From the NCBI GenBank assembly GCA_945876405.1, contig CAMCOJ010000015.1:1-15360 (forward strand): a DNA stretch of 15,360 nucleotides, in the 5' to 3' direction. This document shows positions 1-15,360 of this stretch, piece by piece. The DNA comes from an uncultured Ruminococcus sp. GTDB taxonomy: Bacteria > Bacillota > Clostridia > Oscillospirales > Ruminococcaceae. The notes beneath the pieces are model-generated. The model saw only the letters and a list, made by a program, of their open reading frames with translations. It was not told where the DNA came from and searched no databases. Position 1 is the stretch's first letter, and each line of letters begins with the position of its first letter. The translations under genes and the position numbers were made by a program.

Positions 1-45
1 GATTTCTGCCTGTCTCGTGGGCTCGGAGATGTGTATAAGAGACAG
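1..45 (+). other. Illumina Nextera adapter and index left in the assembly (artefact)
   Basis: This is synthetic sequence, not genome. Bases 1-3 match the end of the P7 primer. Bases 4-11 (TTCTGCCT) match the i7 index of Nextera primer N703 as it reads in the primer. Bases 12-26 (GTCTCGTGGGCTCGG) are the read-2 adapter, and 27-45 are the 19-bp Tn5 mosaic end, ending in GAGACAG. The order primer end, index, adapter, mosaic end is exactly that of a Nextera library molecule. The genomic insert therefore begins at 46, and anything upstream of the first gene is missing. Identification is from memory of the adapter sequences; the match is full length. Confidence 0.97.
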
Positions 46-914
46 GACAGAAAACCGGTGCTTTGACAGCCATAGGCAGTAACGATGGTATGAAGCTTGT
101 TAAGGCGCCTGAGAACAATGATATGTCAGAGGATTGGAGCAACAATGTTGCTTTCTATGACTATTATAAAGTACCAAAGCTTACGCCAGCTTCATCAAAT
201 ACAGGATCCGCTATATATACAACAAATGATGCCAACGGCGTAGGAAAGACCGTAAATGAGACAGGTAATTCTATCATAGGTACTGAGGGTATCTTAGAAT
301 TGCTTGCTGCAGGTGAGACAGCCGTTGTCGAGCCTGCAAGCTCTGCAGAGCGTGCGGATTATGTGGATTTCCCAGTATGGCTTCGTTCTTCCAGTATATC
401 GGATACAAACATCAGTATTAGAGCGACCGTAAAAGATGGTACAAACGATGGTGCTGTTAATGCCGCTGGAAACGGGGATACTTTGTACAAGGCTGCAAGA
501 GTTTCTGTTTTGACAGGGGCAGGTACTGATACGTCAGCAGGTGTAATTATTCCTTATGATGGTTCTGATCAAGGCTCGTATTATGTTTCAAATAAGGCTC
601 TGACCGCTGCGGGTGAATTGGGTACACAAGGAACAAGTGCTGCCTATGGTGTTGTAGATGCAGTTACTCAGAACACTGCTGCTGCAACCGGAGATGGTGA
701 AGTTATTTTTGTGGTTCCCGGTAGCAGTTCAAGTTTGTCAGCTGGAAGCAACTTTAGTAATGGTGCTGCAACTAAGTCTTCTAACAACTATGGTGAAGCA
801 GTTTGTGTAATCGTTAGAGTATGGCTTGAGGGCGAGGACGTAAACTGCTGGAACGCTACAGCTGGTCAGGACTTCCAGATTGCACTTGAGTTTACGAAGA
901 ACGAAACTCCCTGA
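46..914 (+). CDS. SipW-dependent TasA/camelysin-like secreted protein, 5' partial
   Basis: About 288 residues are visible. The reading frame is open back to the adapter junction, so the start codon and signal peptide are missing; the TTG at 63 is an internal Leu codon and not the start. The mature part is rich in Gly, Ser, Thr, Ala and Asn and has no membrane segment. Two segments recall SipW-dependent matrix proteins: DFPVWLRSS (around 365-391) and a C-terminal strand pair VCVIVRVWLEGED...NCW (around 803-850), where the R-[VI]-W-[LI]-E-G-x-D pattern is typical of TasA-like subunits of Clostridia. The two Cys flanking this strand could pair. It ends with TGA followed by a strong terminator, so it is transcribed separately from the downstream operon. 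A role as an abundant fibre or matrix subunit is inference; a general surface protein is the alternative. Confidence 0.75.
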
Positions 915-949: not shown

Positions 950-981
950 CCCCTCCTCCCTACGAGGAGGGGTTAAATTTT
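950..981 (+). terminator. Rho-independent terminator after the TasA-like gene
   Basis: A perfect 9-bp GC-rich stem (CCCCTCCTC at 950-958 with GAGGAGGGG at 964-972) closes a 5-base loop, and is followed by a T-rich but A-interrupted tail (TTAAATTTT, 973-981). It lies 36 bases past the stop codon at 914. It separates the first gene from the operon promoter downstream. Confidence 0.85.
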
Positions 982-1035: not shown

Positions 1036-1064
1036 TTGAAATTTATATCTCTTTATAATATAAT
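1036..1064 (+). promoter_or_regulatory. Sigma-A-type promoter of the four-gene operon
   Basis: A -35 box TTGAAA (1036-1041) and a -10 box TATAAT (1059-1064) are separated by 17 bases, the optimal spacing. The surroundings are very AT-rich. Transcription would begin near 1071, giving a leader of about 42 bases before the ATG at 1113. A second overlapping TATAAT at 1054-1059 is only 12 bases from the -35 box and is less likely. No clear repressor operator is visible. Confidence 0.7.
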
Positions 1065-1097
1065 TATTTATATATATGTTCGGAATATTTATGCTAT

Positions 1098-1106
1098 AGG
1101 GGGTGA
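1098..1106 (+). promoter_or_regulatory. Ribosome binding site for the 370-aa protein
   Basis: AGGGGGTGA, a close variant of AGGAGGTGA, ends 6 bases before the ATG at 1113 and supports that start. Confidence 0.7.
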
Positions 1107-1112
1107 GGCAGG

Positions 1113-2225
1113 ATGAAGAACAGGCTTAATAGAAAAAACGCTTCTTCTGCCCTGACCAGAGATGAGTTAAAGAAAATACGGAAGAAATCTCTTATTAAAC
1201 TGGCAGCTATAGGGGTGTTTGTGGCAGCTATACTTGTATTTCGGTCGACTGCGTGGTTTACAAGTAATAAGGATGTAAGCGGAGATGGGATGCAGATGAC
1301 GGCGAGTGATACACTGTTTGAAATTGCAACAAAAGGCGAAAATGTCCGAAACAGTGAAATCATATCTCAGGCAGACAGCGAATATGGATCGGGCAGCAGA
1401 ACTGAGATTGACAGTACTACATATTACAAAACAGGAAGTACCGAGAAGCTCTTGCTGCGATTCGATACGGGAGACAGTGAGATCGGACCAGGCGACAGCG
1501 GAGAAGTAAGCCTTTATGTAATCCCTAAGCAGGATGGTGATCTGAATGTCAGGATCACACTTGATATAGTGGCTTATACCATGCTTGATAAAAAAGATTC
1601 TAACGGTAATATCATTTATCAAAAGGATGAAAATGGCAGCCCTGTACTGGACGAGTCAGGAAACAGTAAGCCTGAGCAGGTGCTTGCAAAGATCACAAAT
1701 GATATGGCAGATGACAACTATCTCACACCGTCTGAGGTGGCAGAATACACTGCTGCTGCCGATTACCTGAAAGGACATATCATGTTCTTTGGTGACGAGG
1801 GCGATACCGCTAATTCTGACGAAAACGAGCGGTATTACTATAAAACACCGTATACAGCAAGAGAGTTCACTGAAAAGTTTGTAAATGCGGAAACGGGAAA
1901 AGCTTACCGGATTCCGGTCTACTGGATGTGGCCAAACACCTTCGGACAGATTGCACTTCCCGATAACTCCACCGGTCAGCGGAGTGGATATCCTATTCTT
2001 AAGGATACTGACACAGAAAGCAAGACTCTCGTGGCGGACTATCTGAAAGCAAACAAATCGAGCGTATTCACCAATTACACAGAGATCACCGATACAATAC
2101 TCACAGCCCCGGATGAAAGCACCAATTTCAAGCTGCTTAGTGATGGATATAATCGGGCTGACTTCATAATTGGAACAAGTGTGTCTTATTTTATGATTGA
2201 GGTCAGTGTAGAGGCTGCAGAGTGA
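1113..2225 (+). CDS. SipW-type signal peptide protein, first gene of the operon
   Basis: This is an exported protein of 370 residues. A basic N-terminus (residues 1-29, rich in Lys and Arg) precedes one hydrophobic segment (about 30-43) and then S-T-A47-W48-F49-T-S-N. An A-[WY]-F-[TS] sequence directly after the hydrophobic core is the mark of proteins cleaved by SipW-like (ER-type) signal peptidases, such as TasA and camelysin. The mature part begins with VSGDGMQM and contains a beta-sandwich-like stretch, LLLRFDTGDSEIGPGDSG followed by VSLYVIPKQDG. It also has a conserved-looking IPVYWMWPNTFGQI segment around residues 268-281. There is no C-terminal anchor. It is first of four co-directional genes, with 22 bases between its stop and the next supported start. 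Its role is probably as a surface-fibre or matrix subunit or assembly partner; this is inferred from the signal peptide type and context. The specific family is not recognised. Confidence 0.8.
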   Translation: MKNRLNRKNASSALTRDELKKIRKKSLIKLAAIGVFVAAILVFRSTAWFTSNKDVSGDGMQMTASDTLFEIATKGENVRNSEIISQADSEYGSGSRTEIDSTTYYKTGSTEKLLLRFDTGDSEIGPGDSGEVSLYVIPKQDGDLNVRITLDIVAYTMLDKKDSNGNIIYQKDENGSPVLDESGNSKPEQVLAKITNDMADDNYLTPSEVAEYTAAADYLKGHIMFFGDEGDTANSDENERYYYKTPYTAREFTEKFVNAETGKAYRIPVYWMWPNTFGQIALPDNSTGQRSGYPILKDTDTESKTLVADYLKANKSSVFTNYTEITDTILTAPDESTNFKLLSDGYNRADFIIGTSVSYFMIEVSVEAAE

Positions 2226-2232
2226 TTCTATG

Positions 2233-2240
2233 AAAGGAGA
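2233..2240 (+). promoter_or_regulatory. Ribosome binding site that fixes the start of the 296-aa protein
   Basis: AAAGGAGA lies 7 bases before the ATG at 2248. It sits inside the reading frame that would start at the ATG at 2230, which itself has no Shine-Dalgarno. The site therefore decides for 2248. Confidence 0.75.
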
Positions 2241-2247
2241 ACGGCAA

Positions 2248-3138
2248 ATGAAGGATGCTATTAACAAAATCAAAATGCTGTCCGTTCATAAAAAGGTGCA
2301 GCTACTAACAGCGGCGATACTGACCATTTCCGTTTTCACAGCGATACCGGTATATGCATGGTTCAGCAACCAGCATAAGGCGGCAGAGATGTACAAGGTG
2401 GCATACCCCAATTCGCTGTATATTAATGCTGCACACAGAGAGGATAGAATGTATTTTGGACTTGATGCGGTTGATGTCAATGATTATGTCAGAGGTGAAG
2501 ATGGTATCCCTGTCAAAGATACAAATGGCAATATGATTCCAATTACCGAAAAAAAATATGTGTTTACTGTTTCTGGCAGCAATGCTGATAAATTTATACT
2601 GCAGGTAGCTCATACCAATAACAATCTGTTCAACTATAAAATATATGAGGCAAAGCAGTATGATTACCTTGAAGGCGAGGCACCTGAAGGTGCGGATTCT
2701 GATAAAATCGTTCCAGCCGGCACAAGCGATGTCAATGTCATTGAGTATAAGACAAATCCGGGTGGATATACTGAAAACCCGCTGGTATTTGCATCTGACC
2801 CTGTCAACAAAACATCTGAGGAAACTAAATATTACGTAATTGGAAATATGATTAACGGCAAATATCTCAACAATGAAAATAATAATAAACAGATTGGCGC
2901 CGATAACCTTGCCGCTAATAATGATAAATATTATACTGAGAACTACGGGGAGAACACGAATACAGAAGCTCATGCTGTTCCCTCCTACTGGCAGGCAGAA
3001 TTGTCTGCAAATCCTGACGCGAACAAGCAGTTCTGCAAGTACTTTGTTCTCAGAGTGACATGGAATACGACAGAACAAGACGCCAACAAAAAGAAGGAAA
3101 CTGACATGATCTATTTTTCGGTACTGAGAACCCAATGA
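2248..3138 (+). CDS. SipW-type signal peptide protein, second gene of the operon
   Basis: This is an exported protein of 296 residues from the ATG at 2248, preferred over the in-frame ATG at 2230 because of ribosome-site spacing. A basic start (KDAINKIKMLSVHKK) is followed by a hydrophobic core (about 19-36), then V-Y-A37-W38-F39-S-N, again the SipW-type pattern. The mature domain has strands such as YPNSLYINAA (about 54-63) and KKYVFTVSG. Its last fifth carries SYWQAEL, KYFVLRVTWN and KETDMIYFSV. The mature protein is polar, rich in Asn, Lys and Tyr, and has one Cys near the C-terminus. It shares the N-terminal plan of the preceding gene product but little obvious sequence beyond it, so the two are divergent partners and not a recent duplication. 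The exact function is unknown; a subunit or adaptor of an extracellular fibre is an inference. Confidence 0.78.
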   Translation: MKDAINKIKMLSVHKKVQLLTAAILTISVFTAIPVYAWFSNQHKAAEMYKVAYPNSLYINAAHREDRMYFGLDAVDVNDYVRGEDGIPVKDTNGNMIPITEKKYVFTVSGSNADKFILQVAHTNNNLFNYKIYEAKQYDYLEGEAPEGADSDKIVPAGTSDVNVIEYKTNPGGYTENPLVFASDPVNKTSEETKYYVIGNMINGKYLNNENNNKQIGADNLAANNDKYYTENYGENTNTEAHAVPSYWQAELSANPDANKQFCKYFVLRVTWNTTEQDANKKKETDMIYFSVLRTQ

Positions 3139-3158
3139 TTCGATTGCCAAATTTCAGG

Positions 3159-3165
3159 AAAGGAG
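3159..3165 (+). promoter_or_regulatory. Ribosome binding site for the 369-aa protein
   Basis: AAAGGAG lies 9 bases before the ATG at 3175 in the 36-base gap after the preceding stop codon. Confidence 0.7.
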
Positions 3166-3174
3166 CTGCTGAAA

Positions 3175-4284
3175 ATGAAAGACCGCGTTTACAACTTCAT
3201 AAAAAAGCGATGTCTGCTTCTTTGGACGATACTGGCAGCTCTGACGCTGACGAGCATGTATGTATCAGCTGAATATCTGGGAGAGAACAGTGTAATGAAG
3301 CGGGTGGTCATTGCAGATTCAGAGCAGAAAGCAATGTTCTCGTCAAATATACTTGAGGAAAACGGAGAAAAGGTCTATCAGCCCAAATATGTATCTGCCT
3401 TGTCCGAGGAGGATAAAGTGCAGGGAAAAGCATATGATATCAGCCTTCTTCTCTGGAATTACAGTCGTAATAACCCGTCAAAATGGTATTCGCAGGATAT
3501 CAAATATACGCTGACTGCTACGCTTGTAAAGCAGGACGGAACGCCGCTGATATCAGAGGGGCTCGATGAAAACAAAACCATCATGATTCTGAAAGATGGT
3601 GAAGAAAAATGTAAACTAAACAGTTTATCACTTTCCGGAAATTTTTCTGATACGTTGATTTATAAAACAAGCGGCACAACGGATAATACGTACACAATTA
3701 GGTTTTCTAATAATTGGAATTTACAGGATGATACGAACATTTGTGTACAGCTTATCGCCACACCTGACAAAGCCGGAAACGCTGATAAATATAAAGACAT
3801 CAGTAAGATAGGTGCAATCATCGGTCTGCGTGAGTTACAAAGCATGGGTTCATCCGGCTGGCAGGTTTATCTTAATGAACAAAGAAGCGGCGGCGATCCG
3901 AAAGACTATGATGCATATAATCTCGTTGTGACCGGTTCGGGTAACGCGGACATAATCCTGACGATCGATACAAATAAACTGGAATTCAACAAGTATTTCT
4001 ATGACGAAAATCTCAGAATAAAAAACTTTACAGCCGAAGAAGTTGTGTACACAAAACCGGATGAAAACGGGATTGCGACAATGAATATAAAAGCAGATGC
4101 AAGTAAAAACAGAGGAACAGAAGAAAAACCGGAGTACAGAAACAGATATGATATACAGCTTTATAAAAAATATGACAGCAATACTATCGATCCTGAGAAC
4201 TGGAGTTTCTTTGCAGAAGATAACGGCAGTGCAATGTCGGAAGGTGTGTGGCTGATTTACAAAGTTAACACAGATGAAAGCTGA
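3175..4284 (+). CDS. Secreted beta-rich protein, third gene of the operon
   Basis: This exported protein has 369 residues. Its N-terminus has basic residues (KDRVYNFIKKR), a hydrophobic core (about 13-30) and V-S-A32-E33-Y34, a plausible signal peptidase site that resembles the A-W-F sites of its two upstream neighbours but has E-Y instead. Features of the mature part are SVMKRVVIADSEQKAMFSSN just after the cleavage point, and YDISLLLWNYSRNNPSKWY (about 90-108). The last third, with the alternating pattern DIILTIDTNKLEFNKYF, looks like a beta-sandwich. It ends without an anchor at WLIYKVNTDES. No Cys remains after the signal peptide apart from a few scattered ones. It lies 31 bases before the start of the giant gene and is presumably co-translated and co-assembled with it. 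The function is not known; the family is not recognised by name. Confidence 0.78.
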   Translation: MKDRVYNFIKKRCLLLWTILAALTLTSMYVSAEYLGENSVMKRVVIADSEQKAMFSSNILEENGEKVYQPKYVSALSEEDKVQGKAYDISLLLWNYSRNNPSKWYSQDIKYTLTATLVKQDGTPLISEGLDENKTIMILKDGEEKCKLNSLSLSGNFSDTLIYKTSGTTDNTYTIRFSNNWNLQDDTNICVQLIATPDKAGNADKYKDISKIGAIIGLRELQSMGSSGWQVYLNEQRSGGDPKDYDAYNLVVTGSGNADIILTIDTNKLEFNKYFYDENLRIKNFTAEEVVYTKPDENGIATMNIKADASKNRGTEEKPEYRNRYDIQLYKKYDSNTIDPENWSFFAEDNGSAMSEGVWLIYKVNTDES

Positions 4285-4300
4285 CAGTACTTTTAATCAT

Positions 4301-4306
4301 TAGGAG
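4301..4306 (+). promoter_or_regulatory. Ribosome binding site that fixes the start of the giant protein
   Basis: TAGGAG is only 3 bases from the ATG at 4310 but 9 bases from the in-frame ATG at 4316, so translation most likely begins at 4316. Confidence 0.75.
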
Positions 4307-4315
4307 TAGATGCAA

Positions 4316-7300
4316 ATGAATAAATATATAAAGAAAATGACACAAAGCAAAGCATCTAAACGAATTATAAGCGGACTTACGGCATTTGTGATGCTGTCTG
4401 GTGCTTTGCCTGTGAATGATATGAGTAATATCGGTGATTTTTTTTCAGGATTCGGTTATTTTAGTCTCCTGCCTCTGATTGCTTCCGCGGCCGATCCGTC
4501 AGAAGCTGATGATCCGACATTTCAGCATAATCCTGATACATTTGAAATCACAGTAAAGAATTCTGAATTTGCAGACTATTCACGCAGTTGTCAGACTTAT
4601 GCAAAATACCATCAGCAGGACAAGATAACGATTACTGATCTGGATGATACATCGATTTCTGATGCCATTAATTTTGCGGGACTTGGTACAGCCGCATATC
4701 CGTTTGCCGGAAGTATTGCATTTGACGGTAACACAGATATTACGCTGAATCTTGATGGTCCCCTGTTCAATTATGTCTATGACACCGTAACAATTGAAAA
4801 TAACGGAAACCCGCTAAAGCTTTCGAGATATTATTACAGAGGTTCCAGTGCTTCTGATACCACACCTGTCCTTGCACAAAACGTACTTTCCGGAACAGGT
4901 ACGAAAGCTAAATGGGACATCAGTATCGTGAAGCCTACAAATAGTGATGATTATTATCTGAAACCTTTTGGTGGTCTGATTGGCAGAATGTGCAAGGGTG
5001 ATAACTCCGACACCGACTCTCTCTCGATTGAAGTAACAATGAACGCTGACGGTTCTGACAATGGTGCTGTCGAGATTAAAGGAACCACCGATATCGGATT
5101 GATATGCGGTTATATGGAAGAAGGTACATCGCTGACAGCCTCATTCTCTACAAACAGAGGCGGCGGCAAGGGTATCAGCAGTATTTCCACCAGTTCCGGA
5201 AACGCAGGCGGTCTGGTCGGTACAATGGAAAGAGGTGCTGCTCTGACCTATTCCGGCGACCAGTATCAGGCGGATGGTGAAGGGATTAAAACTGCCGACG
5301 GATATGCCGGAGGGATTGCAGGTAAAAACGAAGGAGGCACTATTACTCTGGAGGCTTCCCGTACAATCTCGCAGCACATTGAAGGCACACTTGGTTCCGG
5401 TAGTATTTACGGTTATTACAAGCCGGCTGTGAGCGTAAGGTTTGCTGTAACGGATTATACTATCACAAGTGGTTGTCAGGTCAACGGAAGCGGAAGCATT
5501 GGTGGTCTTTTTGGCGTACTTGAAAATAATTATGATATGGCTATCGAGGGAGCAGAAAACGGAACGTCTTTCACAGCAACCCATTCAGACGGTGCTGCCG
5601 ATGCATTCGGCGGTCTGATTGGTACATATCGCTCTGATAAACTTGCAAACTCACTGGTCATAAAAAATCTTTCCGTGACTCCATCCAGAGGAACGAGTAC
5701 ATTCTATGGCGGTGGCATTGCCGTCATTGATGACACTATTAATTCATCATATGTAAAATTTGAAAACTTTACTGTTACTAATGCAGCTGGTGCGAACGGA
5801 ATAACATTCGGCGGACTTGTTGCAAAAGCTGATAACAGTTTTGTTGAAGCCAGCAACACAACAATTTCGGTCGGCGGTAACTTTAGGGGCGGTGCAGCGG
5901 TTGGCAGCCTTGAAAACGGTGTACTGAAGTTAAGCGGGAAATTTGATATTTCAGGTGCTGCCCCAGGTTCACCGAACGATGATTACAGGGAAGGCAAGAT
6001 TGTTGGCTATCGTGATAATGCACTGATCTATGCTGATAACTGGACTTATTCCGGAAATGATGCTGAAGTTGATAATATCGGCTCCTGGGGAGATATCATT
6101 GTTTTTGACGATACAAAGCTGAAAAAAGCAGATGTACTAACCGAAAAAACTGATCATACAATTACGATAACTGAGCCGGGAGAATCTATAAATATCAATA
6201 GTGTGGCTGACTATGCTAAAACATCACTGGCTTTTCAGATAGATTCTCGAGATAATAAGGTGCTGACTAATGATAAAGCAGCTAAAAATTCCGGGGATAT
6301 TACATTTGGCTCAGACCAAACCGCTGTGACTATTGATCTTACCGGTACAGGGCTTCGGGGCATAACAAGAGACAATACTGAAAACGACAGGATTCCAGAG
6401 GAATCAGACAATGCTGATTACACTGGCACAATAACCGGAAACAACGCAACAATCATTCTGGATTTTGAGAATGTCGGTGGTCTGCCGGTCTGTCGTCACA
6501 AGTACAACGGTATGTTCGCCTTTGTTCATAATACAACTGTAAAAAATCTGAAATTCGAAGGTAAACTGAACCTGAATGCAGTGCAGGCTAATGTCCGAAT
6601 GTTTGGTGCTTCCTTCACGAGCGAAGCATATGGTACCTTTAATGCAGAAAATGTCGAGGTTAACACAGTGTTTACAACCGAAGGCAGCAAGGAGGTATGT
6701 GTTGGCGGATTACTGGGCTGGGGAGCTTCTTCTATAGGTGATATTACCGTTTCTGATAGTACCTTTTACTGTAATATTACTGACAACAATTCAAATAAAG
6801 ACAGTTGCTTCGGAGGTGTAATCGGAAGAATAAACCATTACAATAACACTTCCATTGAATGGGATTTCACTGAATTAAATATCACAGGCAGTATCAAAAG
6901 CAGCACGGGAAGCCCAAGCAGAATTGGCGGACTAATTGCTTCCATTGACCAGCATACCGGTGTAACACAACGCAGCTTGAACTTAACTGGTGTCAATGTG
7001 CAAAATCTTACTCTGACAGGTGCAGGCACATCTATGGGTGGTCTGCTCGGGTATTCGTGGCTGAATGTGAATACTAAATTCAATAATGTAACAGTTACTG
7101 GTTCAAGCATTTCTGACAGCACTGATAAATCCAGACTTGCAGGACTGGTATATTGCGGAACAGGTCACTGGGTTGTTGAAAAAGATACAGAAGATAACCC
7201 AGGGATAAATATCAACGGCCTGACTGTTGACGCCGACAAAGCAGAATCATTTGGAATGATTGTCAATCGGGGCAAAAACAATGAGGATTCAGCAATCTTC

Positions 7301-10300
7301 CTTGAAATAAAAAAAGATGCTTATGTTATTAGTTCTTCTACTCTTGATGGATTGAAGGCTGACTGCATATTTGACGAGATGGTAGCTTACAGTGCGAGCG
7401 ATGTCTGTGCAAACGGCCAGGGTGTGGTATCAATTAATGTTGGTGGCACAGACGGTGGTCTGACAATGGATGGCACAGGAGGAAGCAATACCTACAATGC
7501 ACAGACAGAAAGAGGAAAAATTGCCAACAGCAACACAAGGTATTATTACAATCTGGATACAATTAGGGGAAACACGAATCCAAGTAATGCCGAAAAACTC
7601 TTACTCTGGGCTCTGAATCGTTATGCTCATTCAAGTATTAATACTTATTTTAGCACAAAAGCTGGATGGAACTATCAGTGGGAAGAAAACTGGAAAGAGG
7701 ATATAATTCCTGATGGTATTTATGATATGAAGGGTTACAGCTGGTATCCGGTGGATGTAGGCGATACTGTGACTGTAAACGGTAAATTCACGTTCTATAA
7801 TAAAGGAATCGAGGACTGCGAGAAAGCAAAAACAGACACAAATAAATTCGTCCGGACATCACTCGGTGACAAAAACGCAGGTTATACCCAGCATCATCTG
7901 ATGCAGAACGGACTTTTCCGCGACGTAACAGGTACACTCAATGTGGGAACCGTCAGATTCAGCGGCAGCATCGGTACAGACGACTATGGCTCCGGTGCGT
8001 TGGTATGGGGGACCGTCAAGGGAAGTTCTGCTTCAAATATCGGTTCAGTCATTGTGACAGAGAGCGGAAGCATTACTCTTGATGGAATTTTTGTACATGA
8101 CCTTGCCAGCTACAATCCTCTGCTGATTAATCAGATAGGCTCATACTCGACGGTCTCGCTGAGCGATGTGTCTAACACAGAGGTATATAAAACCATTGAC
8201 GGAATAAATAAACCAGACGGATACCCCAAGGCAGCGACAAGCCTGATTGGTAAAGCTGGAAAAAGTGATGCTACCAATATCAATATTGGTTTTGAAAAAA
8301 TCAAGCTTGATGGCAGAACAGCACACACAAATACAAGTTTAGACACAGTTTATAACACAGAATGTTCACTGTTCACACGTGCTACATTACTGGAACATTT
8401 CCAGTACGATTCAGGTGCATCCGGAATTTATAATTATTCCTACGACGAGGACTGGGGTGCAGATGGTGAAACAACTCCGCCAAGAAACGTAACCTACGGC
8501 TATGAAATCAGTGATCCGGACAGTGAATACTATGGGCAGGAATTTTGGTATAATAATGAAGACCATGAAAACGGAAGATATACAATATACGATTCAGGAT
8601 TAACACCGAAAAACGGAAATGCTGAGACATATAAAAATCAGACTGCATTTAACTATAATAACTTTCTTCCTTATGTCGCAGTGAAAGATCCGTCCAATAA
8701 ACAACACCAGCTGAGTGTCAACCATGCGGCAGCAGGACTTTCCGGATGCGGAACTTATAATGACCCGTATCAGATACCAAATGCAGCTGTTCTGACAAAA
8801 ATAGTTGAATTGCTTAATGGCACAAACTCTTCTGATTTTATCATTAATCTGCCTACGCTTAAAACTGATGAAACTTTACAGTTCAAGTCTTGGGATACCG
8901 ACAGGCATTTAGAATATAAATGGGATAGTACTAATTCTTATTATGTTGATTCAGAAAACAGCAAAACCTATAATCAAGACGATATCCGAAAATATGTTGC
9001 TGGTGCATACTTTGAAATTACTGGAAGCTTTGAACTACCGCAGAATTATAAAGGACTCGGCAATACTCCGAACAATGAAGAATCAGTGTTCAGAGGTGTT
9101 ATTATAGGAAATAATAATACTATCACATTAACAGGAAGTAATCCGTTTATTTTTTCAAGCTATGGAAGTGTGGTAAAAGATTTGACCATCAAGGTTGATA
9201 CTGATATTACAATGACTAACAACACCGGTGGTGTTACTTTCACTCACAATAATAATAATACTAAAACCTATACCTATGGTGCTGTGATTGGCAGAGTCCT
9301 GGGCGGGGATAATATTATTGATAACGTTAGAGTCAATTTCCAGGATAAGAAGATCAAGTTAAGAACAACTGGAACGAATAAACAGAATAGACTCCTTCCT
9401 GTTGGCGGTTATGTAGGAGTAGCTGTGAAAGGCACGCTGATTTTCCGTAATATGGACTCTGTGCCGGAAGCTGATCGAATAGGATTAAAATCGGATACCG
9501 TTGTGGATTATGCTAATCCAGTCAATACTAATCTGGTAAATGATGATGGCTGGCTTTATGTCAACCCAATCATCGGAAGAGTCATCAACGCTGCTGTTTT
9601 TACTGAAAGTAATAAATATCGTCCGTTTGAAGATGGTACAAGAAAGTACTATGATAAAAACGGTAATGAACAGACTTATAAATGGCCTGATGGCGCAGTG
9701 ACCATGAAAAATGGTACAAAGGATTATTCTATTCCTGATATTGACAAGAATGGCGGAAGCTTTACTTTGACAGGGGCTGTCTCAGTAAAGGGAGATATCC
9801 GAACTGATTATAAGAATTATTCAAAATTAACTATGGAATTTCCAAATGCTCAATCTTTGTTTTTGATGTCAGAAATTACGCAGACAGGCATGAGCGAGTC
9901 AACGTACGGCTATCGAAAAACCGATACGCAGTATTGTGGAGATACAGATGCAAAGATTGGAGACATCAAACCGGTAGGAGGCTTCTACGAATCTGACCAC
10001 TGGGGAGTTGCTTCTTATCAAACATATCGCTCTGTTCACAATGCGGAATATGATAGAGTTGGTAGGGATCCTGCCGGAACAGAAGAACCAAATAGTACAT
10101 CAGATACATATACAGATTATGAACTCTCTAAGGCAGACGGCTACTGGGGGATAGAGGACGGAAGTGCAATCAAAAGAAAAAACCTTGTTCCGTATATAGT
10201 AAGGAAATATACCCCAAAGATTTCGGAATCAAAAGGTATTGATGGTGAAACATTACTCGGTGAAGGTTACATTGCCTTTGTTATGACGCATCAGTATAAC

Positions 10301-13300
10301 TATCTGTACATGAAATTCACTGATACCGCAAAGGTCGGAACATATTATCTGCCGGATGGTTTCAGAGGAATCGGAATGCTTGGTCACAAAAACGTGTTCG
10401 TTGGTACTAACTTTGATGGTGAGTATCGCGATATGATTCCTCATATATTTGGTATTGAGGGGAATTATGTAACAGTCAGCCTGAATATGAAACTACACAT
10501 GTATAATAGTGAAGATTCCTATGCAGTTACAGACAAGACATATATGGGCTTTGGATTTTTTGATTCAATGATACAAAATAAGGATGGTTCTGCAAATTCA
10601 ATAGATTTGACAAAAGAAGAATATCAAATCAAAGATTTTACTATTACCGGTTCTGTTTATCTCGATGCTATTGATATGTCCACAGGAAAAATTCCAGCCT
10701 ATACCGAAAGCATGGACAGTAATAGATATTATACAGTAGGGGGGCTCACAGGATCTACACCGGGTACCAGTGAAATATATCAGCTGAATTTGGTAAATGT
10801 TACACCATCTAATTTAAATGTGACTGGGGTAAGATATACAGGTGGTCTGATAGGATATAATGTGTCTAAGAATGAAAAAAAATCAAAGACTACTATTACT
10901 CATATTAAGCCAAAAAAGCTCAAAGTTTCTTCCGGCATATATGCAGGAGGTTTGATTGGCTATTCCACACAAACGGCGCTGGATATCAATGATGTTACAA
11001 TTGAAGAACCCGATATTATCAGCACCTATACGGGCTCAGTAAATAGTTATAAGAATGCTGTAGGCGGCATAGTTGGTTATGTAGATACAAATACTAAAAG
11101 CTATGGAGTTGAGCTAAAAAACATAACAATAGGAAATATAGATGCAGATAAAAGTACGAGTTTTGGTTATGAAAATCAAACAACTCAAGAAGTAACTGTT
11201 GTCGGCGGTCTGATTGGAAAAAATTACACCTATTCATCGCTCAGAATTAGTGATGGTTCAATTACTCATTCTACAAAGATAGAAGACTGTAACATCTACA
11301 ATGTGAACCTCAACGGTCACAGAGTAGGAGGTGTAATAGGAAGCAGTGAAAATAACAATTCCACAACATCAGTAGCCATTTACAATACGCATGTAATCAG
11401 CACGCTGGGATCATCAATAAAAGGTGTGTCAAATACGAATAATAACGACAGAGGCTGTGCCGGTTTCATAGGGTATTTCCGTACATCCAAAGATGATAAT
11501 GTAATAGACGGATGCAGTCTTGAAGGATACAACCTGTATTCTGCTCTGGAAACTGGTGCTGTATCCGGAAACACAGAAGGCGGTACAATTAATATCAGAA
11601 ATTTTAAGGTCGGTGATACTAATATTTATTCAAGCAAAAGTGTTGGCGGTCTCTATGGATGGAATAAGACAAGTATCTTAGGATACAATATCCTGATGAA
11701 TAATGTTTTGTTTTATAATTATGACTCTGATGAAGTCCCCACTACTGAATGTGGTTATTTATGCGGTAATTTTAACGATGGTGGTAGAAGAGTAAAAATA
11801 GCCGGTTTCTCCCGTAAAGGTACGATCAATTGTGAAAAAATGCTGGGAAACAAATCATCAGATTATGATTTCGGTACCGACGGCTATGTAATCTTCTCCG
11901 ACTACGAAGGTCTGTGCCTTACCAACAGTAAGAGCCAAGTATTCTCCGATATAAACGGAGAGTACAACGTCACAGATTACAACGGGGCAATAGTCACAGA
12001 TAACTCACCGTATATTACTTCCAGTCCGAAAAGGTTTATCAGCACCAGCCAGTTCCTGACTGGTGACGGAGTCAGTGCAGTTTCTTTCGCTCAGACACCG
12101 TTCATGAAGATTATAACCGACCGTGTGAATGATGTTGCAGGTGCATATAAAACATCGACTGAGCTTACAGATGAACAGATAGCAGCAATCAAAAACCAGT
12201 TTACCCACTCGCTGGAGGAATTTGACGCCTCAACCGGAGTTGACCATGATTTTCCACTCCTGATTGTCAACGACACAGATCCTACTGCAACCACAGATCT
12301 AATTAATAACTACCTGGGAACGCTGACAAATACAAAATATAATTTTGCTGACAATACCAAAAATGCGATATATGCTGTGGCACTAAACACCTGTATTTTT
12401 AATACGAAAACCGGCAAATTTGATATAATAAAAGACAAAGACGCCAATCTTTATCACAGTACTGTCGGCAATAACCAGCACTGTTTCCGAATGGATGCAA
12501 ATTCCGTCGATAACGGTCATGACTATGCACAGTTTACCCTGCTTGATGTTCAGTTCAAGGATCCGGCAGATACGAGCAAGGTTGCATATCATCTGTATGT
12601 TCCTGTGATTGTCAAAAAACTGCTCCAGTTTGAATTCAATGCCTCCATCGAATCCGGCACGAGCTATTATCCAGATGCATACAGCACTAAGAAAACGCTC
12701 TTTGAAAATCTCGGAAATCCGGCAACAATCAAGTTTGAATATACCTATGACAGGGATGCGGATGGCTGGATTAAGGCAATCAATGAAGGTGAAACCATGT
12801 CAGGCAATCTTAATAAGGCTCTTGCAGTGACATATTCAGGGGGTAAGTGGCCGGACAATACGAGACTTGTTCTTGTGGATGCCAGCAACAAAGATAAATT
12901 TTACTGCCTTGATACCCCAACACAAACAGCCAGTCTGCCGCTTTCCTCCTTTAAGGATGAAAAAGATAACGGCTATGTTCCTGTTCCATTAAACGACCTT
13001 ATGCAGATCACAATTACGCCTGACAGCAATGGTACGCTTATGCTCAACAATGATGAGAATGGTAACAACACAGCTGCAAATGCTACTGTAAAGGATAAAA
13101 ACGGTATCTACTACAGATATATCACATCAAATGATACACCGTCTCAGAAATACATGGCAACAAGTGTAACTGATATCCAGCCGGAGAGATACTATCTCAG
13201 TATCTTTACAAAAAAGAATGACAATGACGGCAGCATCTATCACATAGCACTTTCTTCATTGGATAAATTCAATGAAAATCAGGGATTAACAGGATGGAGA

Positions 13301-14605
13301 CCTAACAAGGTAATTAGTAATAAAAACCAGCCGGTTCATCTGGTTACCGGGATGCTCTATGAAACCAATTATAAACTGACTGCTTCATCCGCTACGAACT
13401 CACAAATTATGAGCAGTACCAATTCGCATCTTGATGTAACTATGAGTTCCACTATTTCACTTACAAAAAATGCGGTCAATAATGGTGTACCCGGAAATAT
13501 GAAAAGTGCAGGTTCATCAACCATCTATCAGACATTCCTTATGACATATGATACGATAAAAACAAAAGGAGAATCATCTGTAATCGGACTGAATGAAAAT
13601 GCTTACCCGTATACAAATGTTCGTTCCTATAAGATCTACAAAGGTAAAACAGTAACAGAGACAGAACCATACAAGGACATTCTCGGAGAAACGAATGGCT
13701 ATACTCCAGCTATCTCCGGCACAAATTTCATTGATCTATGGAATAAACAGAATCTGATCTCACTGCTCAGAGAATCATCAAACGGTTATTCTGTCACCCT
13801 CATAACCAACTTTTGGGTCGGCTATGAACCTGATGCGCTTGGATACCAGTTTCCAAAAAAGAATTCCGGTGAGTCCGATGTGGAGATTGGTGCAAAGGTA
13901 ATAGGCTATTCCAATATTTCTTCCGCACTGGCAAGCTTAAACTACAGCGAAAGCACATGGAGAGCTGAGGGAGATAAAAGATACTACACAGAGGATGATA
14001 GCAGTGCGACTCTGACCTATAATGCGGATACCACACCTGGCAGCAGTTCGGGGTTATACAGTTCACTGGGCATCAATTCAGTTGAACTGGGTGATACTAC
14101 ATCACACATCAGTTCTACAGCAGTTTATGATATCTCTGCGCTGAAATCATCAGGCGAGTATGTTGAATTCAATATCAGCCTTTCAAGCAGAAAGGCTGGC
14201 TACGAAAACAAATTGAAAATTGATCAGTATATTGAAAGCATGGAGATTAAGGGCATTTCGGAAGATCCATTGCTCAAGCTTGATCATGGAACACTAACGA
14301 CTACTAATGATAGTAATATCAAGGTCACCGGGAATGCGAACGGAACAGAGTATACACTCAGGGTGAAAAAGAATCTGCTCCCGACACTTGGGCAGGACAA
14401 GGTTTATACAGTCAGACTGACATATGATATCTATACAGGAAATACAAAGTTCAATCAGACTGGCTTGGCGTATTCCAATTACATGTTGACATTAAATGCT
14501 GCATTATATGACAGCATGAACAGTGAAAACTTTAGCCCATCCTCCAACAGTTCTGATCATATCATTTATACCAATGCAAGGGTACAATCAAAGGTAATGG
14601 ATTAA
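4316..14605 (+). CDS. Giant secreted beta-helix (GLUG-repeat-like) surface protein, 3,429 aa
   Basis: This is a very large exported protein of roughly 370 kDa (estimate from length). The leader is unusually long: KRIISGLTAFVML (15-27), then a second hydrophobic stretch SLLPLIASA (50-58), with probable cleavage at A-S-A near 58. The body is built of parallel beta-helix blocks marked by GG[LIV][IV]G turns. One cluster lies at about residues 219-500, a second at 797-908, and a third at 1655-2444 whose later turns (2142, 2176, 2211, 2250, 2297, 2338, 2382, 2444) come every 34-62 residues. This resembles the GLUG motif of bacterial adhesins. A G-x-G-T-x-x-x-P-Y-x-I cap lies near 1476. The region from about 950 to 1480 has few repeats, and the last 950 residues have none; the C-terminus is beta-strand-rich (SNYMLTLNAAL, DHIIYTNARVQ). 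There is no LPxTG, C-terminal membrane helix, dockerin or S-layer-homology repeat. Last gene of the operon. A role in adhesion or as the tip or scaffold of an extracellular structure is inferred; a carbohydrate-active beta-helix enzyme is less likely but not excluded. Confidence 0.85.
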   Translation: MNKYIKKMTQSKASKRIISGLTAFVMLSGALPVNDMSNIGDFFSGFGYFSLLPLIASAADPSEADDPTFQHNPDTFEITVKNSEFADYSRSCQTYAKYHQQDKITITDLDDTSISDAINFAGLGTAAYPFAGSIAFDGNTDITLNLDGPLFNYVYDTVTIENNGNPLKLSRYYYRGSSASDTTPVLAQNVLSGTGTKAKWDISIVKPTNSDDYYLKPFGGLIGRMCKGDNSDTDSLSIEVTMNADGSDNGAVEIKGTTDIGLICGYMEEGTSLTASFSTNRGGGKGISSISTSSGNAGGLVGTMERGAALTYSGDQYQADGEGIKTADGYAGGIAGKNEGGTITLEASRTISQHIEGTLGSGSIYGYYKPAVSVRFAVTDYTITSGCQVNGSGSIGGLFGVLENNYDMAIEGAENGTSFTATHSDGAADAFGGLIGTYRSDKLANSLVIKNLSVTPSRGTSTFYGGGIAVIDDTINSSYVKFENFTVTNAAGANGITFGGLVAKADNSFVEASNTTISVGGNFRGGAAVGSLENGVLKLSGKFDISGAAPGSPNDDYREGKIVGYRDNALIYADNWTYSGNDAEVDNIGSWGDIIVFDDTKLKKADVLTEKTDHTITITEPGESININSVADYAKTSLAFQIDSRDNKVLTNDKAAKNSGDITFGSDQTAVTIDLTGTGLRGITRDNTENDRIPEESDNADYTGTITGNNATIILDFENVGGLPVCRHKYNGMFAFVHNTTVKNLKFEGKLNLNAVQANVRMFGASFTSEAYGTFNAENVEVNTVFTTEGSKEVCVGGLLGWGASSIGDITVSDSTFYCNITDNNSNKDSCFGGVIGRINHYNNTSIEWDFTELNITGSIKSSTGSPSRIGGLIASIDQHTGVTQRSLNLTGVNVQNLTLTGAGTSMGGLLGYSWLNVNTKFNNVTVTGSSISDSTDKSRLAGLVYCGTGHWVVEKDTEDNPGININGLTVDADKAESFGMIVNRGKNNEDSAIFLEIKKDAYVISSSTLDGLKADCIFDEMVAYSASDVCANGQGVVSINVGGTDGGLTMDGTGGSNTYNAQTERGKIANSNTRYYYNLDTIRGNTNPSNAEKLLLWALNRYAHSSINTYFSTKAGWNYQWEENWKEDIIPDGIYDMKGYSWYPVDVGDTVTVNGKFTFYNKGIEDCEKAKTDTNKFVRTSLGDKNAGYTQHHLMQNGLFRDVTGTLNVGTVRFSGSIGTDDYGSGALVWGTVKGSSASNIGSVIVTESGSITLDGIFVHDLASYNPLLINQIGSYSTVSLSDVSNTEVYKTIDGINKPDGYPKAATSLIGKAGKSDATNINIGFEKIKLDGRTAHTNTSLDTVYNTECSLFTRATLLEHFQYDSGASGIYNYSYDEDWGADGETTPPRNVTYGYEISDPDSEYYGQEFWYNNEDHENGRYTIYDSGLTPKNGNAETYKNQTAFNYNNFLPYVAVKDPSNKQHQLSVNHAAAGLSGCGTYNDPYQIPNAAVLTKIVELLNGTNSSDFIINLPTLKTDETLQFKSWDTDRHLEYKWDSTNSYYVDSENSKTYNQDDIRKYVAGAYFEITGSFELPQNYKGLGNTPNNEESVFRGVIIGNNNTITLTGSNPFIFSSYGSVVKDLTIKVDTDITMTNNTGGVTFTHNNNNTKTYTYGAVIGRVLGGDNIIDNVRVNFQDKKIKLRTTGTNKQNRLLPVGGYVGVAVKGTLIFRNMDSVPEADRIGLKSDTVVDYANPVNTNLVNDDGWLYVNPIIGRVINAAVFTESNKYRPFEDGTRKYYDKNGNEQTYKWPDGAVTMKNGTKDYSIPDIDKNGGSFTLTGAVSVKGDIRTDYKNYSKLTMEFPNAQSLFLMSEITQTGMSESTYGYRKTDTQYCGDTDAKIGDIKPVGGFYESDHWGVASYQTYRSVHNAEYDRVGRDPAGTEEPNSTSDTYTDYELSKADGYWGIEDGSAIKRKNLVPYIVRKYTPKISESKGIDGETLLGEGYIAFVMTHQYNYLYMKFTDTAKVGTYYLPDGFRGIGMLGHKNVFVGTNFDGEYRDMIPHIFGIEGNYVTVSLNMKLHMYNSEDSYAVTDKTYMGFGFFDSMIQNKDGSANSIDLTKEEYQIKDFTITGSVYLDAIDMSTGKIPAYTESMDSNRYYTVGGLTGSTPGTSEIYQLNLVNVTPSNLNVTGVRYTGGLIGYNVSKNEKKSKTTITHIKPKKLKVSSGIYAGGLIGYSTQTALDINDVTIEEPDIISTYTGSVNSYKNAVGGIVGYVDTNTKSYGVELKNITIGNIDADKSTSFGYENQTTQEVTVVGGLIGKNYTYSSLRISDGSITHSTKIEDCNIYNVNLNGHRVGGVIGSSENNNSTTSVAIYNTHVISTLGSSIKGVSNTNNNDRGCAGFIGYFRTSKDDNVIDGCSLEGYNLYSALETGAVSGNTEGGTINIRNFKVGDTNIYSSKSVGGLYGWNKTSILGYNILMNNVLFYNYDSDEVPTTECGYLCGNFNDGGRRVKIAGFSRKGTINCEKMLGNKSSDYDFGTDGYVIFSDYEGLCLTNSKSQVFSDINGEYNVTDYNGAIVTDNSPYITSSPKRFISTSQFLTGDGVSAVSFAQTPFMKIITDRVNDVAGAYKTSTELTDEQIAAIKNQFTHSLEEFDASTGVDHDFPLLIVNDTDPTATTDLINNYLGTLTNTKYNFADNTKNAIYAVALNTCIFNTKTGKFDIIKDKDANLYHSTVGNNQHCFRMDANSVDNGHDYAQFTLLDVQFKDPADTSKVAYHLYVPVIVKKLLQFEFNASIESGTSYYPDAYSTKKTLFENLGNPATIKFEYTYDRDADGWIKAINEGETMSGNLNKALAVTYSGGKWPDNTRLVLVDASNKDKFYCLDTPTQTASLPLSSFKDEKDNGYVPVPLNDLMQITITPDSNGTLMLNNDENGNNTAANATVKDKNGIYYRYITSNDTPSQKYMATSVTDIQPERYYLSIFTKKNDNDGSIYHIALSSLDKFNENQGLTGWRPNKVISNKNQPVHLVTGMLYETNYKLTASSATNSQIMSSTNSHLDVTMSSTISLTKNAVNNGVPGNMKSAGSSTIYQTFLMTYDTIKTKGESSVIGLNENAYPYTNVRSYKIYKGKTVTETEPYKDILGETNGYTPAISGTNFIDLWNKQNLISLLRESSNGYSVTLITNFWVGYEPDALGYQFPKKNSGESDVEIGAKVIGYSNISSALASLNYSESTWRAEGDKRYYTEDDSSATLTYNADTTPGSSSGLYSSLGINSVELGDTTSHISSTAVYDISALKSSGEYVEFNISLSSRKAGYENKLKIDQYIESMEIKGISEDPLLKLDHGTLTTTNDSNIKVTGNANGTEYTLRVKKNLLPTLGQDKVYTVRLTYDIYTGNTKFNQTGLAYSNYMLTLNAALYDSMNSENFSPSSNSSDHIIYTNARVQSKVMD
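4967..5830 (+). repeat. First beta-helix repeat cluster in the giant protein
   Basis: This stretch codes for residues about 218-505. Repeated turns read FGGLIGR, IGLICGY, AGGLVGT, AGGIAGK, IGGLFGV, FGGLIGT and FGGLVAK, at residues near 219, 260, 298, 332, 396, 432 and 499. The basic step is about 34-40 residues, with some turns lacking a recognisable motif. The repeats are protein-level; the DNA copies are strongly diverged. Confidence 0.8.
6695..7150 (+). repeat. Second beta-helix repeat cluster in the giant protein
   Basis: This stretch codes for residues about 794-945. The turns VGGLLGW, FGGVIGR, IGGLIAS, MGGLLGY and a degenerate LAGLVYC are spaced close to 37 residues apart. An upstream entry segment, YTGTITGNN...ILDF with VKNLKFEG (residues about 700-750), resembles those leading into the other blocks. 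Confidence 0.8.
9280..11665 (+). repeat. Third and longest beta-helix repeat cluster in the giant protein
   Basis: This stretch codes for residues about 1655-2450. It begins with YGAVIGR and VGGYVGV, is broken by a non-repetitive insert (about 1710-2130), then runs through VGGLTGS, TGGLIGY, AGGLIGY, VGGIVGY, VGGLIGK, VGGVIGS, CAGFIGY and VGGLYGW. This is the most regular part of the protein. Confidence 0.8.
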
Positions 14606-14633
14606 GCATAACAAAAGGCAAATAGAAAAAAAC

Positions 14634-14687
14634 AACGGCTGTGAACGGTAGAATCACTCTACTACTCACAGCCGTTCTTCTTTTATT
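14634..14687 (+). terminator. Compound hairpin terminator at the end of the operon
   Basis: An 11-bp perfect outer stem (AACGGCTGTGA at 14634-14644 with TCACAGCCGTT at 14666-14676) encloses an inner 5-bp stem (GTAGA at 14648-14652 with TCTAC at 14658-14662). It is followed by a T-rich tail (CTTCTTTTATT, 14677-14687) and preceded by a run of seven A (14625-14631). It lies 28 bases past the giant gene's stop. The A-run would give a U-tract in the other direction as well, so it may act both ways, although no minus-strand gene is visible. Confidence 0.9.
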
Positions 14688-14874
14688 CCTGTACTTTACC
14701 GTGTGCTGTATCCAGCAAAAAAATCATTACGTATCAGAATGTATATTACACAGAGAAACAAATCAAACATACATTACGTTTATCTGAAAAGAGTATGTAA
14801 TATAATTTAAGATTTTGCAGTATTGTTGATATTGTCGTTTCGTAATATATTTTCATCAAACCCACTCCAATCTC

Positions 14875-14903
14875 TTGCAATTTTGCTAACTTTGGAGTAT
14901 AAT
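14875..14903 (+). promoter_or_regulatory. Sigma-A-type promoter of the AAA-ATPase gene
   Basis: TTGCAA (14875-14880) and a consensus TATAAT (14898-14903) are separated by 17 bases. Transcription would start near 14910, about 39 bases before the ATG. Confidence 0.75.
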
Positions 14904-14935
14904 AAAATGGAAGGTCTGTAATGTTTCGTCATCAC

Positions 14936-14940
14936 GGAGG
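14936..14940 (+). promoter_or_regulatory. Ribosome binding site for the AAA-ATPase gene
   Basis: GGAGG, within CGGAGGTGAT, lies 8 bases before the ATG at 14949 and is nearly perfect. Confidence 0.8.
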
Positions 14941-14948
14941 TGATTCTG

Positions 14949-15360
14949 ATGGGAACATATCTGAACCCCGGTAACAGTAGTTTTGGAAGAATACTGAAAA
15001 CCGATTATATTGATAAAACGGGATTGATTGCGCTCATCAACGAGAGAGTTGATACCGAAGAAAGCCTGATTTGTATCAGCCGTCCCCGCCGCTTTGGAAA
15101 ATCTTATGCTGCACGGATGTTATGTGCATATTACGATCACACCTGTGATTCCCATAAATTATTTGAGAAATTAAAGATCAGTAAAGATATAAGTTACGAG
15201 GAACACATCAACAAATATAATGTGATATATCTTGACGTTGCCTCATTTATGTCGGAACTGAAACGGCAGAAGCACAGTATAAAAGATGTGGCAAATGATA
15301 TAGCAGAAACTATAAGAAGTGAACTGGTTGCTGATAAACCCGAACTTTCTGAAATATCCA
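14949..15360 (+). CDS. AAA-ATPase-like protein (PF09820 type), 3' partial
   Basis: The first 137 codons are present and the frame is open to the window end. The protein starts MGTYLNPGNSSFGRILKTDY and continues with YIDKTGLIALIN (20-31). The Walker-A-like loop is SRPRRFGKS (about 46-54). A beta-strand NVIYLDVASF (about 94-103) follows, in the right place for the next core strand of the ATPase fold. This order is characteristic of the AAA-ATPase-like family often paired with a C-terminal PD-(D/E)XK nuclease-like domain, with full lengths usually near 500-600 residues; that C-terminal part is outside the window. These genes occur in many copies in gut Clostridia and Bacteroidetes, and their biological role is not settled. 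It has its own promoter and lies beyond a strong terminator, so it is not part of the surface-protein operon. Confidence 0.88.
   Translation, partial: MGTYLNPGNSSFGRILKTDYIDKTGLIALINERVDTEESLICISRPRRFGKSYAARMLCAYYDHTCDSHKLFEKLKISKDISYEEHINKYNVIYLDVASFMSELKRQKHSIKDVANDIAETIRSELVADKPELSEIS

What the first reader, a model, noticed from the sequence alone, without database searches (positions are those of the whole stretch)
1036..14687. Operon of three SipW-type secreted proteins and one giant beta-helix protein: candidate surface-fibre or matrix system
One promoter, short gaps, strong ribosome sites and one terminator bind four export-signal genes into a unit. Three mid-sized proteins share a basic N-terminus, one hydrophobic core and an A-W-F or A-E-Y site, as in TasA/camelysin-type matrix proteins, but differ strongly afterwards. 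The fourth is a 3,429-residue beta-helix protein. With the TasA-like gene just upstream, the layout suggests a major subunit, specialised minor subunits and a giant adhesin or scaffold made together. I know of no characterised system with this exact set.
Basis: partly seen in the sequence, partly recalled or inferred. Interest (0 to 1): 0.75.

Follow-up and report, generated by a model that had tools for sequence, protein, structure and literature searches.

The report
Swappable surface-fibre operon with SipW machinery
A bacterium related to Ruminococcus carries a conserved four-gene set for three mid-sized exported proteins and one giant repeat protein, probably a surface fibre, whose genes appear to have been swapped between relatives while the neighbouring export machinery stayed almost unchanged.

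Summary
Four tight co-directional genes (g1 370 aa, g2 about 296, g3 369, giant about 3,430) lie between a good promoter and a strong terminator. I found the set in 13 genomes; 12 keep g1-g2-g3-giant in order (the 13th contig ends after g2). In a draw of 394 genomes of the order, the 10 with strong g2 are the 10 with long g1 matches, and all 10 carry a McrB-like AAA+ protein (36 of the other 384 do). That protein lies beside a DUF2357 (McrC-type) protein and SipW-type peptidases: a module named CoCoPALM in print, not characterised. In one genome of another order, module and operon are contiguous. New here: the operon behaves as an exchangeable cassette. Against a congeneric genome the McrB-like protein is 529/530 identical and the flank 97%, yet g1/g2/g3 are 36/32/21% identical and group with another order (AU p 3.7e-5). 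Best reading: SipW-processed surface-fibre cargo of CoCoPALM under diversifying exchange. Not shown: folds, secretion, fibres. The three mid-sized proteins show no detectable homology to each other or to the TasA-like neighbour beyond the leader; structure prediction never ran.

The parts
12..45 (+). sequencing-adapter residue at the contig end (artefact)
   Evidence: read directly; adapter motif recalled
48..914 (+). 3' part of a TasA-like SipW-type gene (putative major subunit), truncated by the contig end
   Evidence: 38% identity to the full gene at the same place in G007; TasA-like C-terminus matches that of the module protein wleg
950..972 (+). terminator-like hairpin after the TasA-like gene
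   Evidence: z -3.8
1036..1064 (+). promoter-like site of the operon
   Evidence: 11 of 12 matches
1113..2225 (+). g1, 370 aa, AWF leader
   Evidence: homologues in 13 genomes
2248..3138 (+). g2, about 296 aa, AWF leader (ORF opens at 2230)
3175..4284 (+). g3, 369 aa, AEY leader
4310..14605 (+). giant, about 3,430 aa, conventional export signal (by eye), GLUG-like repeats, conserved C-terminal IYTN end
4970..5623 (+). first block of GG-x-x-G repeats in the giant (aa 221-438)
10841..11659 (+). last block of GG-x-x-G repeats in the giant (aa 2178-2450)
14634..14676 (+). terminator hairpin followed by CTTCTTTT
14626..15360 (+). conserved flank, 97% identical to G007 and single-copy in both genomes: downstream edge of the exchanged stretch
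14940..15360 (+). AAA-ATPase_like (PF09820) gene, truncated; not counted as part of the system

Best explanation
The four genes encode the outer parts of a cell-surface fibre or scaffold. SipW-type (Ser-His) signal peptidases cut the three mid-sized subunits after the Ala of A-W-F / A-E-Y, as they cut TasA; the freed N-terminal strand may then link subunits (inferred, by analogy with TasA donor-strand exchange). The giant leaves by an ordinary export signal and forms the long repeat scaffold or tip (inferred). Assembly is run by a neighbouring or distant CoCoPALM module: wleg membrane protein, SipW1, membrane-anchored McrB-like AAA+ protein (p530), DUF2357 protein, SipW2. The module stays constant while the operon is replaced as an allelic cassette between lineages, as expected for an exposed structure under pressure from phages, protists or neighbours. 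Shown: gene order, co-occurrence, SipW signatures, the module's composition, the discordant divergence. Inferred: secretion, folds, fibre formation, the role of nucleotide hydrolysis, the selective pressure.
For: Order g1-g2-g3-giant in 12 of 13 genomes, the 13th cut by a contig end. Order draw of 394: long g1 matches in 10, strong g2 in the same 10; p530 in 46, including all 10; Fisher p 1.8e-10 (shared ancestry not corrected, the 10 fall in 7 families). Contiguous wleg-SipW1-p530-DUF2357-SipW2-g1-g2-g3-giant in G675, another order; p530-DUF2357-SipW2-g1-g2-g3-giant in G413; module downstream in G007. Of the 30 best p530 loci (46 genomes positive), 30 have DUF2357 beside p530 and 26 have SipW1. 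SipW1 of G007 is over the TIGR02228 cut-off (82.6 of 51.85 bits) and matches the Bacillus SipW model at E 7e-31, though below that model's own cut-off (107 of 190 bits); both peptidases of G000 and of G675 have SDSM or TGSM and a THRI histidine. 23 of 32 short leader-only hits lie within 17.3 kb of p530. SipW2 is fused to DUF2357 in R. flavefaciens. Exchange.
Against: No profile homology among g1, g2, g3 and the TasA-like protein once the leader is removed (best E 0.025, probability 1.9%); no convincing PDB match; no PF12389 match. No structure prediction could be run. Close linkage of module and operon is seen in 4 of 13 genomes (G007, G413, G675, and G314 only across a contig break), is likely in G000, and in the other 8 they lie on different contigs. 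36 of 384 operon-free genomes of the draw have p530, so the module does not need this operon. No LPXTG wall anchor was found in the six giants scanned except one internal LPYTG in G080.
Confidence: 0.6

Rival explanations
1. Giant adhesin with dedicated helpers: the giant alone is the surface structure and g1-g3 are its membrane or wall anchors and chaperones, with no polymeric fibre.
For: The giant keeps length (3,330-3,954 aa) and 15-16 repeat motifs in 6 of 6 complete giants counted, so it looks like a fixed-shape body; g1-g3 share no detectable homology beyond the leader, unlike repeated pilin subunits.
Against: g1-g3 carry the leader type of polymerising TasA-class proteins, and AWF-leader genes sit beside the module or the operon in many loci.
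Confidence: 0.2
2. Defence or antagonism device: the McrBC-like module is a defence system and the operon is its cell-surface sensor or a contact-dependent weapon.
For: p530 resembles McrB (PDB 6hz4, E 7e-4) and a PADLOC candidate-defence model (PDC-M26A, E 1e-36); cassette exchange would also fit phage receptors or immunity loci.
Against: Pfam found DUF2357 but no nuclease domain at E <= 0.1 in the G007 partner protein; the giant's C-terminus is conserved rather than a variable toxin tip; two signal peptidases and export leaders fit assembly better.
Confidence: 0.1
3. An ordinary sipW-tasA-type biofilm matrix operon with one large extra protein; the co-occurrence only reflects lineages rich in SipW systems.
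For: sipW-bsaABCRSD in C. perfringens and tapA-sipW-tasA in B. subtilis are known; p530 also occurs without the operon.
Against: All-or-none occurrence of the operon, 10 of 10 with p530, contiguity in two orders, rarity (10 of 394 in the order draw, 3 of 341 in the class draw, 1 of 393 in the phylum draw).
Confidence: 0.1

Closest known systems
[quoted passage not shown]
   Same: McrB-like NxD domain behind a membrane and coiled-coil stretch, DUF2357 partner, signal-peptidase genes; here the module that goes with the operon.
   Different: The passages I read give the name and the signal-peptidase link and defer details to a later paper; exported cargo such as g1-g2-g3-giant and its exchange are not in those passages (supplements and figures not seen).
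Clostridium perfringens sipW-bsaABCRSD (PMC7395162, passages read)
   Same: SipW peptidase with several putative secreted proteins in one operon; BsaA forms filaments.
   Different: The whole operon is a 7.3-kb transcript, so no giant fits; the genes named are a peptidase, secreted proteins and a two-component system, none McrBC-like.
Bacillus subtilis tapA-sipW-tasA (PMC9674648, passages read)
   Same: SipW-cleaved leader; minor subunit TapA proposed to start the fibre.
   Different: No detectable family match of g1-g3; three genes, no giant, no AAA+ module.
Bacillus cereus TasA/CalY/CapP (PMC13082335, abstract and outline read)
   Same: Several exported proteins making sortase-independent filaments.
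   Different: Three components; the abstract names no giant protein or McrBC-like module.
GLUG-repeat proteins (PF07581)
   Same: GG-x-x-G repeats; the only two PF07581 places in the genome at E<=10 are in the giant.
   Different: Best score 17.1 bits, below the 20.5 cut-off.

Membership tests
CoCoPALM (module on G000:C109, outside the window) | McrB-like GTPase with the NxD signature | tested here: met
   A-N-N-D-D invariant in 5 of 5 aligned; PDB match McrB, E 7e-4
CoCoPALM (module on G000:C109, outside the window) | N-terminal membrane plus coiled-coil (FtsB-like) domain fused to the GTPase | tested here: inconclusive
   hydrophobic span about residues 55-80 then a coiled-coil-like stretch, read by eye; no membrane, coiled-coil or FtsB profile test
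CoCoPALM (module on G000:C109, outside the window) | McrC-type DUF2357 partner | tested here: met
   PF09823 E 4.5e-8 in the G007 protein; relative adjacent to p530 in 30 of the 30 best loci
CoCoPALM (module on G000:C109, outside the window) | associated signal peptidases | tested here: met
CoCoPALM (module on G000:C109, outside the window) | position in the CoCoPALM clade of the McrB tree | not tested
   reference alignment not held
TasA/camelysin (PF12389) for g1-g3 | family profile match | tested here: not met
   0 matches in G000 at E <= 0.001, B. subtilis control rings; none at E <= 1 for g1-g3
TasA/camelysin (PF12389) for g1-g3 | SipW-type leader | tested here: met
   38 of 38 sequences (with alignments); motif definition from memory and the TasA paper
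TasA/camelysin (PF12389) for g1-g3 | jelly-roll fold and donor-strand fibre | not tested
   Structure prediction queue full at every attempt
SipW peptidase (C109) | SipW-type signal peptidase profile and Ser-His residues | tested here: met
   two over the TIGR02228 cut-off in G000:C109; residues read; the Bacillus-specific SipW model NF046067 matches below its cut-off
GLUG (PF07581) for the giant | score above curated cut-off | tested here: not met
   17.1 of 20.5 bits

The most novel reading that the evidence does not exclude
CoCoPALM is an energised, membrane-bound McrBC-derived fibre-assembly machine, and g1-g2-g3-giant is one exchangeable fibre cassette for it: a constant engine with horizontally swapped surface appendages, a new class of Gram-positive surface assembly system.
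Probability: 0.3. Interest if true: 0.85.

Novelty: new variant of a known kind. Interest (0 to 1): 0.62.

Why it matters
SipW/TasA-type fibres are known to me mostly from Bacillus. This links a giant repeat protein and three exported proteins to an uncharacterised McrBC-like membrane module in relatives of Ruminococcus, including R. flavefaciens, and so gives CoCoPALM a concrete candidate cargo and a test. The discordant divergence suggests that the structure is exposed and under diversifying pressure. Relatives of restriction enzymes driving surface assembly would be unexpected.

Tried and rejected
Family searches gave nothing above a cut-off for g1-g3, giant, wleg or TasA-like (truncated copy; full copies); a few chance-like matches at E 0.008 to 1 are listed there. 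PDB profile searches gave no convincing hit: g1 none; g2 best E 0.027 (a viral envelope fragment); g3 best E 0.48; giants best E 0.029 (PduA); TasA-like and wleg none. The apparent g1/TasA-like and g2/g3 similarity vanished once leaders were trimmed, so I do not claim homology among g1-g3. Foreign base composition of the operon: rejected, 41.0% G+C against 40.2-41.6% in four other stretches of the genome. Two different loci rather than one exchanged locus: not favoured, the downstream flank is single-copy in both genomes. A contig chimera is not excluded by reads, but in both genomes the shared flank begins about 20 bp after the giant's stop, and the 1003-1310 stretch is 86% alike. GLUG membership: below cut-off. 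A contact-toxin reading of the giant: not favoured, conserved C-terminus. Papers: the searches listed no paper that, by title and start of abstract, describes this operon; lists were capped (for example 20 of 205, 12 of 28, 12 of 215). 'CoCoPALM' gave 10 papers, of which by title only the eLife paper and its preprint concern it. Only open-licence PMC full texts were searched.

Full report
What is there. The window is a whole contig (G000:C15; genome 2.5 Mb in 434 contigs, 88% complete). Its first 45 bases include adapter, so the TasA-like ORF (48-914) lacks its start. After a hairpin (950-972), a promoter-like site (11 of 12 matches) opens a unit of four + strand genes with gaps of 4-36 bp, closed by a strong hairpin at 14634-14676. 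The g1, g3 and giant starts follow purine-rich ribosome-site-like runs; the site before 2230 is weak.

Is it a unit? Yes. Homologues came from one contig scan (2 loci) and from genome draws. Thirteen genomes have g1 and g2: G000, G007 (the genome of locus L001), G061 (R. flavefaciens MA2007, L002), G039, G065, G080, G081, G311, G314, G366, G410, G413 and G675. In 12 of them g1-g2-g3-giant follow in that order on one strand; in G311 the contig ends after g2. Seven giants are complete, 3,330-3,954 aa; five run off a contig or fetched stretch. Tallies: 2 of 11 genomes of the genus; 3 of 61 relatives; order draw of 394, 29 with any g1-profile match, of which 10 cover most of the profile in one or two pieces, and 13 with any g2 match, of which 10 are strong and are the same ten, the other three at E above 1e-4; class draw 3 of 341 at 1e-10; phylum draw 1 of 393, the window's own genome. 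The draws overlap. The operon is rare and, in these draws, all-or-none.

Leaders and homology. g1 has [AG]WF in 13 of 13, g2 AWF in 13 of 13, g3 A[E/A/I][Y/F] in 12 of 12, each after a hydrophobic stretch with basic residues before it (three rows read by eye). After removing the leader, hhalign finds no relation among g1, g2, g3 and the TasA-like protein (best E 0.025). The TasA-like C-terminus does match that of wleg, a membrane protein of the module below, over 34 columns (E 5e-5, probability 68%).

The machinery. G000 has two SipW-class peptidases above the TIGR02228 cut-off, both on contig C109; G007, G039 and R. flavefaciens also have two or more (4 of 4 genomes searched). Around them lies a module: wleg, SipW1, a 530-aa protein (p530), a DUF2357 protein, SipW2. 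p530 has a hydrophobic span and a coiled-coil-like stretch (by eye) and a domain matching McrB (PDB 6hz4, E 7e-4) with an invariant A-N-N-D-D, that is, the NxD signature. This fits the CoCoPALM systems named in PMC11090510 (passages read), where associated signal peptidases were proposed as pilus assembly factors and details were left to a later paper. In R. flavefaciens SipW2 is fused to DUF2357, which supports joint function. Of the 30 best p530 loci (one from each of 30 of the 46 positive genomes), 30 have DUF2357 next to p530 and 26 have SipW1 within the fetched 1.5 kb; of the other four, three lie at contig ends and one (L113) shows none. The 16 weaker genomes were not examined this way.

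Operon and module go together. p530 is in 46 of 394 genomes of the order draw at E <= 1e-40, including 10 of 10 operon genomes and 36 of 384 others (Fisher p 1.8e-10, without correction for ancestry). The three operon genomes outside that draw also have it (G007, G061; G675). In G675, of another order, wleg-SipW1-p530-DUF2357-SipW2-g1-g2-g3-giant lie together on one strand; in G413, p530-DUF2357-SipW2-g1-g2-g3-giant; in G007 the module is downstream of the giant behind the AAA-ATPase_like gene; in G314 the same is likely across a contig break. G000 is likely like G007, its two contigs being near-identical to that stretch. In the other eight operon genomes they lie on different contigs; some of these contigs are short. 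Of 32 short leader-only hits of the g1 profile (15 of the 47 rows, belonging to the ten long matches, were set aside), 23 lie within 17.3 kb of p530, in 19 genomes (the 18-kb limit was chosen after seeing the list).

Cassette exchange. G000 and G007 are of one genus; one 20-kb background stretch is 91-94% identical in its five main blocks. C109 is 98.7-99.4% identical to G007, and the flank after the giant 97.0% from position 14626, single-copy in both genomes. p530 is identical at 529 of 530 residues. Yet g1, g2 and g3 are 36, 32 and 21% identical between these genomes, against 39, 46 and 37% to G675 of another order (three-sequence alignments with another counting gave 41, 36 and 28% to G007). 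The TasA-like gene is 38% and the giant 48% overall. A tree of g1-g3 joins G000 with G675 and G007 with R. flavefaciens (100/100 each) and rejects G000 with G007 (p-AU 3.7e-5; this pair was named after a first tree had been seen), while p530 joins G000 with G007 (100/99). The giant is mosaic: residues 451-1500 are 59-76% identical to G007, residues 2851-3300 only 26-29%, where G675 is at 41-46%; its first 1,150 residues place G000 with G007, not G675, so the giant does not share the history of g1-g3 throughout. Upstream, the only stretch with a blastn match at 1e-10 to the G007 stretches compared is 1003-1310, from before the promoter to about 17 residues past the g1 leader (86%). Composition does not differ from the genome, so donors would be of similar G+C. 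Exchange is the best reading; very fast divergence in place is less likely given the tree.

Mechanism. Shown: a conserved gene set, SipW leaders, a SipW/McrBC-like module, and discordant divergence. Inferred: SipW1 and SipW2 process g1-g3 and the TasA-like protein; wleg anchors the base; the TasA-like protein is the main subunit; g1-g3 start, join or cap the fibre; the giant, with fixed repeat number (15-16 motifs in 6 of 6 counted) and conserved C-terminus, is a scaffold or tip; p530 and DUF2357 drive or gate assembly. Rivals are a helper-dependent adhesin, a defence or antagonism device, and an ordinary matrix operon.

Verdict. Observation confirmed, interpretation partly supported and extended. 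Membership of g1-g3 in TasA/camelysin is not met by sequence; the module meets the CoCoPALM criteria tested, one being inconclusive and one untested. New, as far as the searches above show, is the conserved and exchanged cargo of an uncharacterised module.

Noticed in passing
window 1-45: Sequencing-adapter sequence at the contig end; G000:C109 also ends in what looks like adapter-derived translation (L028 end; recalled).
   Followed up: no
L008:1725-2492 and L030:10608-11366: EAL-domain genes directly upstream of wleg in G007 and R. flavefaciens look degenerate (no E-A-L or DDFG by eye), so perhaps a c-di-GMP sensor rather than an enzyme.
   Followed up: partly
L030:4372-7326: SipW2 is fused to the DUF2357 protein in R. 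flavefaciens MA2007.
   Followed up: partly
L129 and L126 (G410): Two p530 modules, each beside an array of four or more AWF- or similar-leader genes.
   Followed up: no
window 14940-15360; L008:2559-4175: AAA-ATPase_like gene (with PDDEXK_9 in the full copy) lies between giant and module in G007, and starts at the same place after the giant in G000.
   Followed up: partly
L130:14600-14760: A short repeat matching dozens of places in G007.
   Followed up: no
L124:11720-15973; L128:1466-7021: Large GWF/AWF-leader ORFs (1,417 and 1,851 aa) near the module in G081 and G065.
   Followed up: no
L001:1665-4724; L002:6008-7696: GGDEF/EAL or EAL-like genes lie a few kb upstream of the operon in both named loci (the L002 one named by eye).
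   Followed up: no
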